DNA of 64,000 nucleotides, taken from Pseudomonas sp. (GTDB lineage: Bacteria > Pseudomonadota > Gammaproteobacteria > Pseudomonadales > Pseudomonadaceae). The notes beneath the pieces are model-generated. The model did not search any database. It worked only from the letters and a program-made list of their open reading frames with translations, and was not told the origin of the DNA. Below, in pieces: positions 35,724 through 38,784 of the stretch (positions within the stretch are counted from its first letter, which is position 1; each line of letters begins with the position of its first letter). Position numbers and translations under genes: made by a program. The stretch covers positions 248,001 to 312,000 of the forward strand of contig VMRT01000001.1 of assembly GCA_007713455.1 (NCBI GenBank). The letters run 5' to 3'.

Positions 35724-36449
35724 GTGGCTACAGCACGAATCGGATTTCTGCCGGCGGCGTTGATCGCCGCGGCGGTGGCTTTCGCCGGTTGGTCGGTGGG
35801 GCAGGGTGTGGAGCGTTTTCGCATGGCTGACCGCACGGTGACGGTCAAGGGCCTGGCGGAGATGGACGTGAAGAGCGACTTCGCGGTGTGGACGCTGGGC
35901 TTTCGCCGTGGTGGCGATCAGTTCGCCGAGGTGCAGAAGGGGCTGAGCGAGGATCGCCAGTTGGTGCTGGATTTCCTCCGCGAGCAGGGCTTCACCGACG
36001 CGGAGATCGAAGTGCGACCGTTGCAGGTCCAGGATCTGCTGGCGCGTGAATGGGCCTCGCGTGATGTGGCGCTGCGCTTCAACGGCCAGGGTCAGGTGCT
36101 GGTCAAGTCCGAGCGCGTCGACGCGGTGGGTAAGGCGGCCAATGCCATTGATCCGCTGATCTTGGCCGGTGTTCAGCTGGATACCGAGATGAACGGCTTC
36201 GCCGGGCCGCGTTATCAGTTGCGTGGCTTCAACGAGCTCAAGCCGCAATTGCTGGAAGCGGCTACCAGCAATGCCCGTGAACAGGCGACGCGTTTTGCCG
36301 AGGATGCCGGTGCCACGCTGGGGCGCTTGAAGAGTGCCAACCAGGGGGTGATTCGGGTTATCGATGACGATGGCAGCGATATGGACAGTGGGCGGACCGT
36401 GGGGAAACGGCTGCGGGTGGTGAGTACGTTTGAGTACACGTTGGATTGA
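35724..36449 (+). CDS. SIMPL domain-containing protein (DUF541)
   Basis: A 241-residue protein with an N-terminal membrane helix or signal peptide (IGFLPAALIAAAVAFAGWSVGQG) and a SIMPL/DUF541 domain (VTVKGLAEMDVKSDFAVWTLGF... to ...LRVVSTFEYTL). SIMPL proteins are envelope-located; the E. coli member YggE relates to oxidative stress. GTG start behind AGGGGAG. Confidence 0.85.
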   Translation: MATARIGFLPAALIAAAVAFAGWSVGQGVERFRMADRTVTVKGLAEMDVKSDFAVWTLGFRRGGDQFAEVQKGLSEDRQLVLDFLREQGFTDAEIEVRPLQVQDLLAREWASRDVALRFNGQGQVLVKSERVDAVGKAANAIDPLILAGVQLDTEMNGFAGPRYQLRGFNELKPQLLEAATSNAREQATRFAEDAGATLGRLKSANQGVIRVIDDDGSDMDSGRTVGKRLRVVSTFEYTLD

Positions 36450-36519
36450 TATGGGGCTGAGTCTCTGAATGACGCGCCAACCGCCTGCCAAGGCGGATCA
36501 ACCGCACTGCCCAAGCGCT

Positions 36520-36546
36520 TTTAAGCCCGGTAGCCCATGGCTTAAA
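36520..36546 (+). terminator. inverted repeat after the SIMPL gene
   Basis: TTTAAGCC and GGCTTAAA are 11 bases apart, about 70 bases after the SIMPL stop; a smaller CCGCCT-GCCA-AGGCGG hairpin lies at 36481-36496. They may end the SIMPL transcript or belong to the Fic promoter region. Confidence 0.35.
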
Positions 36547-36555
36547 GGTTAGACA

Positions 36556-36586
36556 GTGAGCCGATTAGCCGGCATTATCGGCTCAC
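36556..36586. promoter_or_regulatory. operator palindrome 1 upstream of fic
   Basis: GTGAGCCGAT and ATCGGCTCAC form a perfect 10-bp inverted repeat with an 11-bp spacer. It sits 51-81 bases before the Fic start and shares half-sites with a second palindrome, pointing to a dimeric regulator, plausibly the winged-helix domain of the Fic protein itself. Confidence 0.6.
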
Positions 36587-36590
36587 CAAA

Positions 36591-36619
36591 TGAGCCGAAT
36601 AAGCCCGTTAATCGGCTCA
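36591..36619. promoter_or_regulatory. operator palindrome 2 upstream of fic
   Basis: TGAGCCGA and TCGGCTCA form an 8-bp inverted repeat with a 13-bp spacer, ending 17 bases before the Fic ATG and covering its ribosome-binding region edge (AGAGGAG at 36621). Its centre is about 34 bp (a little over three helical turns) from that of palindrome 1. Confidence 0.6.
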
Positions 36620-36636
36620 CAGAGGAGCCAGCCCTC

Positions 36637-37770
36637 ATGAATGACCCGCTCTGGATCTGGCAGCAGCCCGATTGGCCGCACTTTAGCTGGCAAGCCGACG
36701 CACTTGCTCCGCTGCTGCGTACCTGCAGCCAGGCTCAGGGGCGCTTGCTCGGGATGCTCGGTGCCGTGGGCAGTGACACGGAGGTGCAAAGCAGCCTGGA
36801 TGCCATGCTGCAGAACATCGTCACCTCATCAGCCATCGAGGGTGAGCAGCTGGATGTCGGCTCCGTGCGCTCGTCACTGGCGCGGCGCCTGGGGCTGAAC
36901 GAAGAAGGCCGCATCACCTCGCGTTCCGAAGGCCTGGCGGAACTGCTGCTTGATGCCACCCGCGCGTATCAGCAGCCGCTCGATCTGCAGAGGCTGTTCA
37001 CCTGGCATGGCTGGTTGTTCCCCAGCGATGGTGACTTACTGGCCCGCCCGTTACGCATCGGTATGCTGCGCGGCGAGGAGCCCATGCAGGTAGTTTCCGG
37101 GAGACTCGACCGCCCTACCGTGCATTTCGAAGCGCCACCCCGCGCCGGGCTGGAAGAACAACTGGACGGCTTCCTTGCCTGGTTCGAGAGCAGCCGCCGC
37201 GATGCAGGCCTCGACCCATTTCTACGAGCCGGCATTGCGCACTTCTGGTTCGTCACCCTGCACCCCTTCGATGACGGCAACGGCCGCCTTACGCGTGCCA
37301 TCACTGACCTGGCACTGGCTCAGGGAGAACAGCAGGCCATCCGCTTTTACGCCGTGTCGGCGAGCATCCTCGATGACCGCGCCGGCTATTACCGCATCCT
37401 GGAAGCGAGCCAGAAAGGCACGCTGGATATCACCGCCTGGTTGCAATGGTTCCTCGCCACGCTGCTCAAGAGCATGGAGCAGGCCCTTGCTCGTATCGAC
37501 CGCGTGCTGGTCAAGGCACGCTTCTGGCAGGCTCATCGTAGCCAAACCCTGTCTGCCGAGCAGATCAAAGTGCTTAACCGCCTGCTCGATGGCGGCGAGA
37601 GAGGTTTCGAGAACGGCATCAGCGCCGCGCAATACCAGGCCGTGGCCAAGGTCTCTAAAGCCACCGCCACGCGCCATCTGAGCGACCTTGTCGAGAAGGG
37701 CTGCCTGGCCAGACTCCCGGGCGGCGGACGCAGCACGCGCTACCAGATACAGCACTCGGCACACGCTTGA
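36637..37770 (+). CDS. Fic family protein with DUF4172 and winged-helix domain
   Basis: A 377-residue Fic AMPylase-type protein. N-terminal DUF4172 domain; inhibitory helix motif SSAIEGE (64-70, class II Fic with the autoinhibitory Glu); catalytic loop HPFDDGNGRLTR (209-220); C-terminal winged helix-turn-helix (KVSKATATRHLSDLVEKGCL region, about 335-360) with a beta hairpin (LPGGGRSTRYQ). The ATG at 36637 lies behind AGAGGAG; the upstream open frame only translates the operator repeats. Likely moves AMP onto a target protein and autoregulates its gene. No separate antitoxin is present. Confidence 0.9.
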   Translation: MNDPLWIWQQPDWPHFSWQADALAPLLRTCSQAQGRLLGMLGAVGSDTEVQSSLDAMLQNIVTSSAIEGEQLDVGSVRSSLARRLGLNEEGRITSRSEGLAELLLDATRAYQQPLDLQRLFTWHGWLFPSDGDLLARPLRIGMLRGEEPMQVVSGRLDRPTVHFEAPPRAGLEEQLDGFLAWFESSRRDAGLDPFLRAGIAHFWFVTLHPFDDGNGRLTRAITDLALAQGEQQAIRFYAVSASILDDRAGYYRILEASQKGTLDITAWLQWFLATLLKSMEQALARIDRVLVKARFWQAHRSQTLSAEQIKVLNRLLDGGERGFENGISAAQYQAVAKVSKATATRHLSDLVEKGCLARLPGGGRSTRYQIQHSAHA

Positions 37771-37790
37771 AAAAGTGAGTCGCCCAACAG

Positions 37791-37837
37791 CGCGAAACCA
37801 GGCTTTCATCAACTCCTTGGATAGCCCTGGTTCCGCG
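37791..37837. terminator. hairpin between fic and the ABC permease
   Basis: CGCGAAACCAGG and CCTGGTTCCGCG pair with a single mismatch around a 23-nt loop, in the gap between the convergent fic and ABC permease genes. No T tract; probably a shared terminator. Confidence 0.45.
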
Positions 37838-37857
37838 TAGCCAACCGGCCCGACAAA

Positions 37858-38784
37858 TCAATGCCCCGGCTGCCAAGGCTGCCCCAGCGACACCGGCGCG
37901 TACAACCGCGTACGGATCGCATCCCGCGACAGCAGCACCAGCACCAGAATGGTCGCCACATACGGCAGCATCGCCAGCAGGTTGCCGGGGATCGCCAGGC
38001 CGAGGCCCTGCGCCACCAGGTGCAGGATGCTGGCCAGGCCGAACAGGTACGCGCCGAGCAGGACGCGGCTCACTCGCCAGCTGGCGAACACCACTAGGGC
38101 CAGGGCGATCCAGCCGCGGCCGGCGGTCATGTTTTCCGCCCACATCGGCGTGTAGGCGAGCGACATGTAGCCGCCGGCAAGCCCTGCCATTCCGCCGCCG
38201 AACATCACCGCCAGGGTGCGCACGCGCAGTACCGGCAGGCCCATGGCGCTGGCGGCGTTGGGGTTTTCGCCGACGGCCTGGATGATCAGGCCGATGCGGC
38301 TTTTCAGCAGCACCCAGGCCACCAGCGCGAACAGTGCGAAGGACAGGTACACCAGCAGATCCTGGGCGAACAGCATGCGGCCGATCACGGGGATCTCGCT
38401 GAGCAGCGGAATGGCGATCGGCTCGAAGCCGGCCAGCGGCTTGCCGACCCAGCTGGCACCAACGAAGGACGAAAGGCCGACGCCGAAGATGGTCAGCGCC
38501 AGGCCGGTGGCGACCTGGTTGGCATTGAAGCCCAGCGCCACCATGGCGAACAGCAGCGACAGCAGCACGCCGGCCAGGCAGGCGAACAGCACGCCGAGCC
38601 AGAGGTTGCCGCTGGCGAAGGCGACGATGAAACCGATCACCGCGCCGAACAGCATCATGCCCTCCTGGCCGAGGTTGAGTACGCCGGTCTTCTCGCACAC
38701 CAGCTCGCCGAGGGCGACCAGCAGCAGCGGCGTACCGGTGCGGATCATGGCGTAGAAGATATTGGTCAGCAGATCCATGTCCAT
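37858..38784 (-). CDS. nucleoside-type ABC transporter permease (second)
   Basis: A 308-residue permease of the BPD_transp_2 type used with BMP-family binding proteins, like NupQ/YufQ nucleoside importers. GVLNLGQEGMMLFGAVIGF near residue 33 and the QAVGENPNAASAMGLPVLRVR loop (about 185-205) are typical. A start 6 bases downstream is possible. Last gene of the three-gene unit. Confidence 0.88.
   Translation of the reverse strand: MDMDLLTNIFYAMIRTGTPLLLVALGELVCEKTGVLNLGQEGMMLFGAVIGFIVAFASGNLWLGVLFACLAGVLLSLLFAMVALGFNANQVATGLALTIFGVGLSSFVGASWVGKPLAGFEPIAIPLLSEIPVIGRMLFAQDLLVYLSFALFALVAWVLLKSRIGLIIQAVGENPNAASAMGLPVLRVRTLAVMFGGGMAGLAGGYMSLAYTPMWAENMTAGRGWIALALVVFASWRVSRVLLGAYLFGLASILHLVAQGLGLAIPGNLLAMLPYVATILVLVLLSRDAIRTRLYAPVSLGQPWQPGH

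What the first reader, a model, noticed from the sequence alone, without database searches (positions are those of the whole stretch)
36556..37770. Fic protein with two tandem operator palindromes
Two palindromes sharing TGAGCCGAT half-sites with centres 34 bp apart cover the promoter of a DUF4172-Fic-winged-helix gene. The HTH on the enzyme itself is a natural ligand, suggesting that AMPylation or oligomer state controls autorepression. No antitoxin gene is next to it; the inhibitory Glu is internal.
Basis: partly seen in the sequence, partly recalled or inferred. Interest (0 to 1): 0.6.

Follow-up and report, generated by a model that had tools for sequence, protein, structure and literature searches.

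The report
Fic enzyme with its own operators
A bacterial AMP-transferring (Fic) enzyme carries its own DNA-binding domain and, judging from hundreds of relatives, very probably binds two matching palindromes over its own promoter to switch its gene off; the arrangement is widespread among such enzymes and makes their DNA target testable.

Summary
Two 29-bp palindromes (TGAGCCGA-N13-TCGGCTCA; 36557-36585 and 36591-36619, centres 34 bp apart) are the only exact copies in the window and in the genome. The gene starts at ATG 36637, not 36556. A sigma-70-like promoter (TAGACA-17-CATTAT, 36550-36578) runs into palindrome 1. The protein is DUF4172-Fic-winged helix, closest to CbFic2 (8CIL).

Comparison says the operators belong to the Fic protein itself. 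In 293 homologs the 29-bp geometry persists (165/167 at >=60% identity, 96/126 below; shuffles give about 8 and 9), while the half-site changes (TGAGCCGA, TGCGGAGA, TGGCGTGA, TGAGTTAT and others) together with the recognition helix: block 339-348 ranks first of 368. Tandem spacings cluster at 34, 44-45 and 54-56 bp, one helical turn apart. The unit shared between genomic contexts runs from the -35 to about the stop.

Best explanation: autorepression by a Fic dimer on each palindrome, as shown for CccR. That DNA binding also switches catalysis is inferred from CbFic2. New variant of a known kind; no bench data.

The parts
36550..36555 (+). -35-like hexamer TAGACA
   Evidence: only sigma-70-like hit in 36440-37900, shuffles mean 0.2; same place relative to palindrome 1 (-21 from its centre, 17-bp spacer) in 91 of 162 homologs, no promoter of 8/12 or better found in 56 of 162
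36557..36585 (.). operator palindrome P1, TGAGCCGA-N13-TCGGCTCA, centre 36571; covers promoter spacer and -10
   Evidence: conserved in homologs
36573..36578 (+). -10-like hexamer CATTAT in the right part of P1
36591..36619 (.). operator palindrome P2, centre 36605, 34 bp from P1; lies in the predicted leader
   Evidence: 34-bp spacing in 137 of 140 adjacent pairs and in 13 of 13 genus loci
36622..36627 (+). ribosome-binding site GAGGAG (by eye)
36637..37770 (+). fic gene, 377 aa (ATG start)
36652..36897 (+). DUF4172 (residues 6-87); in CbFic2 this part holds the crystal dimer interface
   Evidence: Pfam PF13776 E 4e-32; PMC10628234 passage
36826..36843 (+). inhibitory motif SSAIEG, residues 64-69, Glu68
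36976..37317 (+). Fic domain (residues 114-227)
   Evidence: Pfam PF02661 E 1.1e-11
37261..37296 (+). Fic active-site motif HPFDDGNGRLTR (residues 209-220)
37546..37752 (+). C-terminal winged helix (about residues 304-372)
   Evidence: predicted model; aligned to 8cil
37657..37695 (+). recognition helix (residues 341-353); residues 339-348 covary with operator bases
37705..37749 (+). wing (residues 357-371); Gly363/Gly364 covary with inner operator bases 7, 8, 10

Best explanation
This is a self-regulating Fic enzyme. The winged helix at its C-terminus binds the half-site TGAGCCGAATA; a DUF4172-mediated dimer places two winged helices 21 bp (two helical turns, about 71 A) apart on one 29-bp palindrome. 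One dimer on P1 covers the promoter spacer and the -10; a second on P2, 34 bp away, covers the first transcribed bases. Together they shut off transcription of fic, so the enzyme is kept scarce (negative feedback). Its own operators are its only evident targets: no regulon and no antitoxin were found. Shown (computationally): the palindromes, promoter overlap, conservation, fixed geometry, helical phasing, covariation with the DNA-reading residues. Inferred: binding, repression, co-operation of the two dimers. Inferred more weakly, from CbFic2: operator-bound dimers are in the deAMPylating or inactive state, and free monomers AMPylate.
For: Palindromes unique in the genome. Promoter runs into P1 (same register in 91 of 162 homologs with a palindrome). 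All 13 full-length genus homologs of 84% identity or more keep both palindromes 34 bp apart; 20 of the 26 palindromes have all 8 arm pairs, 5... for each; the worst has 6 of 8. 29-bp palindromes (any register) in 165/167 homologs of >=60% identity and 96/126 below 60% (shuffles 8.4 and 9.15; coding control 27/167 and 10/126). Spacing 34 bp in 137/140 adjacent pairs; in the <60% homologs 46 of 50 pairs are 34, 44-45 or 54-56 bp. Half-sites change but geometry stays; operator differences track residues 339-348 best of 368 ten-residue blocks after correcting for overall divergence (r 0.536; best block ending before residue 325 is 0.315; 0 of 999 permutations reach the value for 338-348), also with other controls. 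Position 3 A/C goes with Ala/Asp342 (r 0.91); inner positions 7, 8, 10 go with wing Gly363/364. No second protein with this winged helix in the genome (next E 0.19). Shared unit = promoter + operators + ORF. Precedents: CccR, footprint on its own promoter and derepression in the deletion (PMC9755527, passages seen); CbFic2, DNA of 20 bp or more induces the dimer (PMC10628234, first parts of sections 15 and 16 seen).
Against: No binding or expression data for this protein. 30 of 126 homologs below 60% identity show no palindrome under my rule. Part of the covariation is clade structure: residue 229 in the Fic core follows position 3 almost as well as residue 342 (0.88 against 0.91), and residue 78 follows positions 7, 8 and 10 nearly as well as the wing (0.77, 0.61, 0.62 against 0.81, 0.77, 0.74). 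6 of 24 phylogenetically independent pairs with different operators have no difference in residues 339-348. Without the TGCGG class the margin over non-wHTH blocks shrinks to 0.48 against 0.41. CbFic2 bound random DNA with nanomolar affinity (PMC10628234), so specificity is not a given. CccR's operator has a different spacing (N26). Orphan operators without an intact fic exist in related genomes. The promoter is a consensus match only, and no such promoter was found in 56 of 162 homologs.
Confidence: 0.86

Rival explanations
1. A different, unlinked regulator binds the palindromes and controls fic.
For: No direct binding data for Fic; related genomes carry orphan operators without an intact fic.
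Against: Half-site changes follow the Fic protein's own recognition helix and wing; the sites are shared together with the gene between genomic contexts; only these two exact sites in the genome; no other protein with this winged helix there.
Confidence: 0.05
2. The protein binds the sites but activates its own promoter, or the sites serve mainly to switch its catalytic state.
For: CbFic2 activity changes on DNA binding (PMC10628234); in CccR repression and toxicity were separable (PMC9755527, passages).
Against: P1 covers the -10 and spacer, and P2 would cover the first transcribed bases (the start of transcription is inferred), positions that usually repress; CccR represses from palindromes near its -35 and -10.
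Confidence: 0.06
3. The repeats act as RNA hairpins in the leader (attenuator or translational control).
For: P2 would form a hairpin just before the ribosome-binding site.
Against: P1 covers the -10 and would not be transcribed; all four half-sites share one sequence, which RNA pairing does not need; leader folding is not exceptional (z -1.56, 20 of 200 shuffles as good); the three Rfam matches are far below their gathering scores and on the other strand; in 44 of the 89 distant homologs counted a palindrome centred at -14 reaches into the start codon.
Confidence: 0.02
4. The palindromes are ends or targets of a mobile element rather than operators.
For: The gene sits in several contexts (6 upstream and 4 downstream clusters among 13 loci), and operator-only scars exist.
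Against: The exact pattern does not recur at the 3' side of the gene; the sites keep register with the promoter and with each other; covariation with the winged helix.
Confidence: 0.01

Closest known systems
CccR (Yersinia pseudotuberculosis; PDB 7XUX; PMC9755527, passages seen)
   Same: Fic protein with C-terminal HTH that binds inverted repeats in its own promoter and represses itself; dimer needed; inhibitory helix internal.
   Different: Footprint AGATAATCAT-N26-ATGATAATCT, one pair of repeats; here TGAGCCGA-N13-TCGGCTCA, two tandem palindromes. Low sequence similarity (7xux: E 1.7e-5; Z 23.9, rmsd 11.2, 323 aligned). CccR is a secreted T6SS effector acting on FtsZ; nothing of that was tested here.
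CbFic2 (Coxiella burnetii CBU_0822; PDB 8CIL; PMC10628234)
   Same: Same domain order over the full length, 45% identity in the structural alignment, Z 40.7, rmsd 2.8, 349 aligned; DNA binding by the winged helix, DNA-induced dimer.
   Different: Random DNA was used and a specific sequence was left open; shown to modify histone H3. No operator is reported in the parts I read (abstract, passages, first parts of sections 15 and 16).
SoFic (Shewanella oneidensis SO_4266; PDB 3EQX/3ZCN)
   Same: Fic protein with winged helix (3zcn Z 25.7, rmsd 10.1, 341 aligned); PADLOC SoFic model match, E 1.5e-36, residues 24-371.
   Different: Far below the NCBIfam SoFic equivalog cut-off (52.7 against 550 bits); DNA binding of SoFic not shown to date according to PMC10628234.
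Doc/FicT-type toxin-antitoxin modules (recalled)
   Same: Fic fold; small autoregulated locus.
   Different: No antitoxin gene found; inhibitory motif and DNA-binding domain are both in the one protein.

Membership tests
class II Fic AMP-transferases | Fic motif HPFx[D/E]GN[G/K]R | tested here: met
   HPFDDGNGRLTR, residues 209-220
class II Fic AMP-transferases | inhibitory [S/T]xxxE[G/N] helix N-terminal to the Fic core | tested here: met
DUF4172-Fic-winged-helix proteins (CbFic2 group) | DUF4172, Fic and C-terminal winged helix in this order | tested here: met
   PF13776 and PF02661 above cut-off; the winged-helix Pfam model DIP2311-like_C is below its cut-off (22.2 against 27), but the domain is in the predicted model and aligns to 8cil
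DUF4172-Fic-winged-helix proteins (CbFic2 group) | DNA-induced dimer, switch from AMPylation to deAMPylation | not testable with these tools
   needs purified protein
CccR-type autorepressing Fic proteins | inverted repeats over the own promoter | tested here: met
CccR-type autorepressing Fic proteins | 26-bp spacer between half-sites | tested here: not met
   13-bp spacer here and in the homologs with a palindrome
CccR-type autorepressing Fic proteins | measured autorepression and specific binding | not testable with these tools
   needs gel shift and reporter
CccR-type autorepressing Fic proteins | secretion by T6SS, AMPylation of FtsZ | not tested
   -
SoFic equivalog (NCBIfam NF046030) | score above 550 bits | tested here: not met
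   52.7 bits
SoFic as anti-phage defence gene (PADLOC) | match to the PADLOC SoFic model and protection against phage | tested here: inconclusive
   E 1.5e-36 over residues 24-371, no cut-off given; protection not testable
Fic/Doc toxin-antitoxin module | adjacent antitoxin gene | tested here: not met
   neighbours are SIMPL and a convergent ABC permease; no separate ORF of 30 aa or more on the + strand between the SIMPL gene and the fic frame

The most novel reading that the evidence does not exclude
The operator DNA is the antitoxin. Because the locus is tightly autorepressed, the few Fic molecules in a cell are mostly held as dimers on their own two palindromes, in the DNA-bound deAMPylating or inactive state described for CbFic2. 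Loss, dilution or degradation of the host chromosome (for example by an infecting phage) would both release the enzyme as an AMPylating monomer and lift repression, making the gene a sensor of its own operators. Orphan operators left behind by fic loss would then mark former carriers.
Probability: 0.07. Interest if true: 0.85.

Novelty: new variant of a known kind. Interest (0 to 1): 0.56.

Why it matters
The authors of the CbFic2 structure left open whether such enzymes read a specific sequence. For this family the answer appears to be yes, and the sequences are now readable: a 29-bp palindrome with two half-sites 21 bp apart, an outer part that goes with the recognition helix and an inner part that goes with the wing; 11 different half-site octamers occur in two or more of 142 representatives. 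That gives defined DNA ligands for testing whether operator binding switches AMPylation to deAMPylation, a natural series for studying how the specificity of a winged helix evolves, and reason to think that autorepression, shown for CccR, is common in a large and often transferred class of Fic enzymes that needs no separate antitoxin.

Tried and rejected
RNA hairpin or riboswitch: no Rfam family near its cut-off, leader fold unremarkable. Regulon: no surplus of related sites in the genome. Another protein with the same winged helix in the genome: none. Other Fic genes of the same genome: L001 and L003 have no perfect 8-bp-arm palindrome of this geometry upstream. SoFic proper and SoFic-like (NF046030 hits), looked at as an extension: half-sites such as TGTCGATA/TGTCGAAA recur upstream by eye, but perfect 8-bp arms with a 13-bp spacer are in only 5 of 30 and with an 11-bp spacer in 6 of 30 (3 of 33 loci dropped as short), so the same geometry is not claimed. 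The notebook first took 7cb8 for CccR; it is 7XUX, 7cb8 is a Mycobacterium marinum protein. Literature: searches listed no paper on operators for this group beyond CccR and CbFic2 (open-access library only; most listed papers were seen as listings, not read); one search used whole-word terms, returned 0 papers and is too narrow to count. Structures absent from the 50 rows are not evidence of anything.

Rows dropped: one search covered 351 loci; 34 were dropped (28 with identical proteins, 3 short, 2 partial, 1 with under 100 bases upstream), and the remaining 24 that are not among the 293 had no hit at its E-value limit. One search used the 251 of 293 with a TG..CA palindrome and 142 representatives below 85% identity; the TG..CA filter fixes positions 1 and 2 by construction. 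The five >=60% homologs without a strict palindrome are near-variants (L092, L246, L291), a run of N (L238) and L118, whose match starts at residue 39 so that its start was probably miscalled.

Full report
What is there. The window is from a Stutzerimonas genome (its genus mate G043 has a contig of the same length as the named S. stutzeri KOS6 locus L171). Upstream of a 377-aa gene (ATG 36637 to stop 37770) lie two palindromes of the form TGAGCCGA-N13-TCGGCTCA, 36557-36585 and 36591-36619, centres 34 bp apart. They are the only exact copies in the 64-kb window (0 in 100 shuffles) and in the 4.7-Mb genome. The only sigma-70-like promoter found in 36440-37900 is TAGACA (36550-36555), 17 bp, CATTAT (36573-36578): the -10 lies in the right part of P1, and transcription would start at about 36585, between P1 and P2 (inference). 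The stated start 36556 is an alternative GTG; close homologs start at the equivalent of 36637.

The protein. Pfam gives DUF4172 (residues 6-87) and Fic (114-227); a third, winged-helix model is below its cut-off. The motifs are SSAIEG (Glu68) and HPFDDGNGRLTR. AlphaFold2 (36-row alignment; pLDDT 89.0, pTM 0.87) shows helices 307-318, 330-337 and 341-353 and strands 357-359 and 369-371, i.e. a winged helix with recognition helix 341-353. The best solved relative is 8cil, CbFic2 of Coxiella burnetii: E 2.2e-103, Z 40.7, 349 aligned residues, 2.8 A, 45% identity. The NCBIfam SoFic cut-off is not met; the PADLOC SoFic model matches over residues 24-371, E 1.5e-36.

Conservation of the operators. 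In the genus, 40 of 56 genomes have some match to the protein; 13 of 56 have a full-length copy of 84% identity or more (loci L004-L016), and one more, L018, is a distant full-length homolog (43-47%) with a TGCGG-type palindrome. All 13 keep both palindromes at exactly 34 bp; of the 26 palindromes 19 have all 8 arm pairs, 6 have 7 and one has 6 (the For line gives the same loci less exactly, and one search is the reference). These 13 loci fall into 6 upstream and 4 downstream context clusters; between loci in different contexts (L004 against L009, L010, L015) similarity begins at locus bases 1413-1416, i.e. window 36549-36552, the -35, and ends at 2613-2631, at or up to 21 bases before the stop codon at 2632-2634. 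Promoter, operators and gene thus persist and seem to travel as one unit.

Wider sampling (family, class and phylum searches, plus 80 named loci; regions) gave 351 loci and 293 distinct homologs (dropped rows under Tried and rejected). An odd-centred 29-bp palindrome with at least 7 of 8 arm pairs, in any register, lies upstream in 165 of 167 homologs of at least 60% identity and 96 of 126 below 60%; shuffled upstreams gave means of 8.4 and 9.15, a coding stretch 27 of 167 and 10 of 126. In the first group 130 of 167 have two palindromes, 5 three, 27 one and 5 none by a stricter TG..CA rule (6 of 8 pairs), and 137 of 140 adjacent spacings are exactly 34 bp. The half-site consensus from 604 half-sites is TGAGCCGA(A/T)TA. 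A promoter whose -35 begins 21 bp before the P1 centre with a 17-bp spacer was found in 91 of 162, none of sufficient score in 56 of 162.

Same geometry, different letters. Among distant homologs the half-site changes: TGCGG(A/T/C/G)GA, TGAG(T/C)TAT, TGGCGTGA, TGAGGCGA, TGAGGTGA, TGATTAAT, TGAAGCGA, TGATTTGA and others, with the 29-bp length kept. In the 89 distant homologs sorted, adjacent palindromes are 34, 44-45 or 54-56 bp apart in 46 of 50 cases, i.e. 34 plus zero, one or two helical turns. A palindrome centred at -14, reaching the first base of the start codon, occurs in 16 of 18 of the TGnnnnAT class, 19 of 46 of the TGCGG class, 7 of 17 of the mixed rest and 2 of 8 of the TGAGCC-like.

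Covariation. For 142 representatives I correlated operator differences (positions 3-8) with residue differences after removing the effect of overall divergence. The best single columns are 341, 342, 348, 229, 345, 339, 333, 340 and 330: all but 229 are in the helix-turn-helix. Among 368 ten-residue blocks, 339-348 is first (r 0.536); the best block ending before residue 325 reaches 0.315; for block 338-348 none of 999 permutations reached the observed value (largest 0.17 against 0.538). Between proteins 45-60% identical in the core, residues 339-348 are 92% identical when operators agree (612 pairs) and 45% when they differ by two or more bases (1742 pairs); at 30-45% the figures are 80% (81 pairs) and 54% (4086), at 60-80% 98% (2442) and 81% (15). 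Position 3 (A or C) goes with residue 342 (Ala or Asp, r 0.91); positions 7, 8 and 10 go with wing residues 363 and 364. Controls: with divergence taken from only one half of the core, helix-turn-helix blocks still lead (0.583 against 0.350; 0.530 against 0.329); without the TGCGG class the wing (0.481) and helix (0.447) lead, but the best other block is 0.414. Against: residue 229 follows position 3 nearly as well (0.88), residue 78 follows positions 7, 8 and 10 (0.77, 0.61, 0.62), and for position 4 columns 86 and 35 equal the best wHTH column, so part of the signal is shared ancestry. Of 24 phylogenetically independent pairs with different operators, 6 have no difference in residues 339-348, five of them differing in one half-site base only. 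In bins of equal core identity the differing pairs carry more helix changes in five of six bins (bins of 1 to 8 pairs).

How it most likely works. A DUF4172-linked dimer reads the two half-sites of a palindrome; 21 bp between half-site centres is about 71 A, close to the 70.2 A between the DNA-reading helices of the CccR dimer and in line with the 20-bp DNA needed for CbFic2 dimerisation (PMC9755527 passages; PMC10628234 section 15 part 1). Dimers on P1 and P2 block the promoter. This is what was shown for CccR: more promoter activity in the deletion, DNase I footprint, binding lost on mutating the repeats. Whether the bound dimer of this protein is the deAMPylating form, as proposed for CbFic2, is an inference; the CbFic2 authors themselves found the crystal dimer hard to fit to 20 bp of DNA without rearrangement. 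By its recognition helix, seen in the alignment, CbFic2 resembles the small class found with TGAGGCGA (2 of 3 members); this is a prediction, not tested.

Orphan operators. An exact operator pattern occurs in 148 of 338 family genomes, its reversed control in none of the rows. Twenty regions were taken from the printed matches because no intact fic lay beside the site; one of them (L412) also holds an intact fic elsewhere, the other 19 do not. Seven of the 20 show fic coding remnants next to such a palindrome, one more is marginal, and the rest show the operator only. Nine of the 20 lie before a NERD-domain gene (named in one, L417; the other eight by similar N-terminal sequence). I read these as scars of fic loss, but retained function is not excluded.

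Verdict. New, as far as my searches go, are the operator architecture, the helical phasing and the family-wide covariation.

Noticed in passing
L412-L431 (orphan operators in related genomes): Intact 29-bp operators without a neighbouring intact fic; 7 of 20 regions keep fic coding remnants, most others only the operator, 9 of 20 before a NERD-domain gene. Scars of gene loss, or sites kept for another use.
   Followed up: partly
L017, L020-L023 and a second copy in G047:C1:2199246-2200375: Disrupted fic copies recur in the genus; by eye L020 and L022 keep both palindromes and L017 and L021 one, as if two tandem sites had recombined.
   Followed up: partly
L352-L354, L382-L391 (SoFic proper) and L397-L411 (SoFic-like): Several upstreams hold recurring half-sites TGTCGATA/TGTCGAAA, or TGTATAGAAA (by eye), suggesting that SoFic-type enzymes have own-promoter operators too; geometry less regular.
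   Followed up: partly
L097, L139: Three tandem palindromes (L097) and a single one (L139) before fic, by eye: operator number varies by whole units.
   Followed up: no
distant homologs such as L123, L124, L158, L163: By eye a TTGnGC-17-CAnAAT promoter ends six bases before the ATG, which the last palindrome touches: possible leaderless, operator-embedded start.
   Followed up: no
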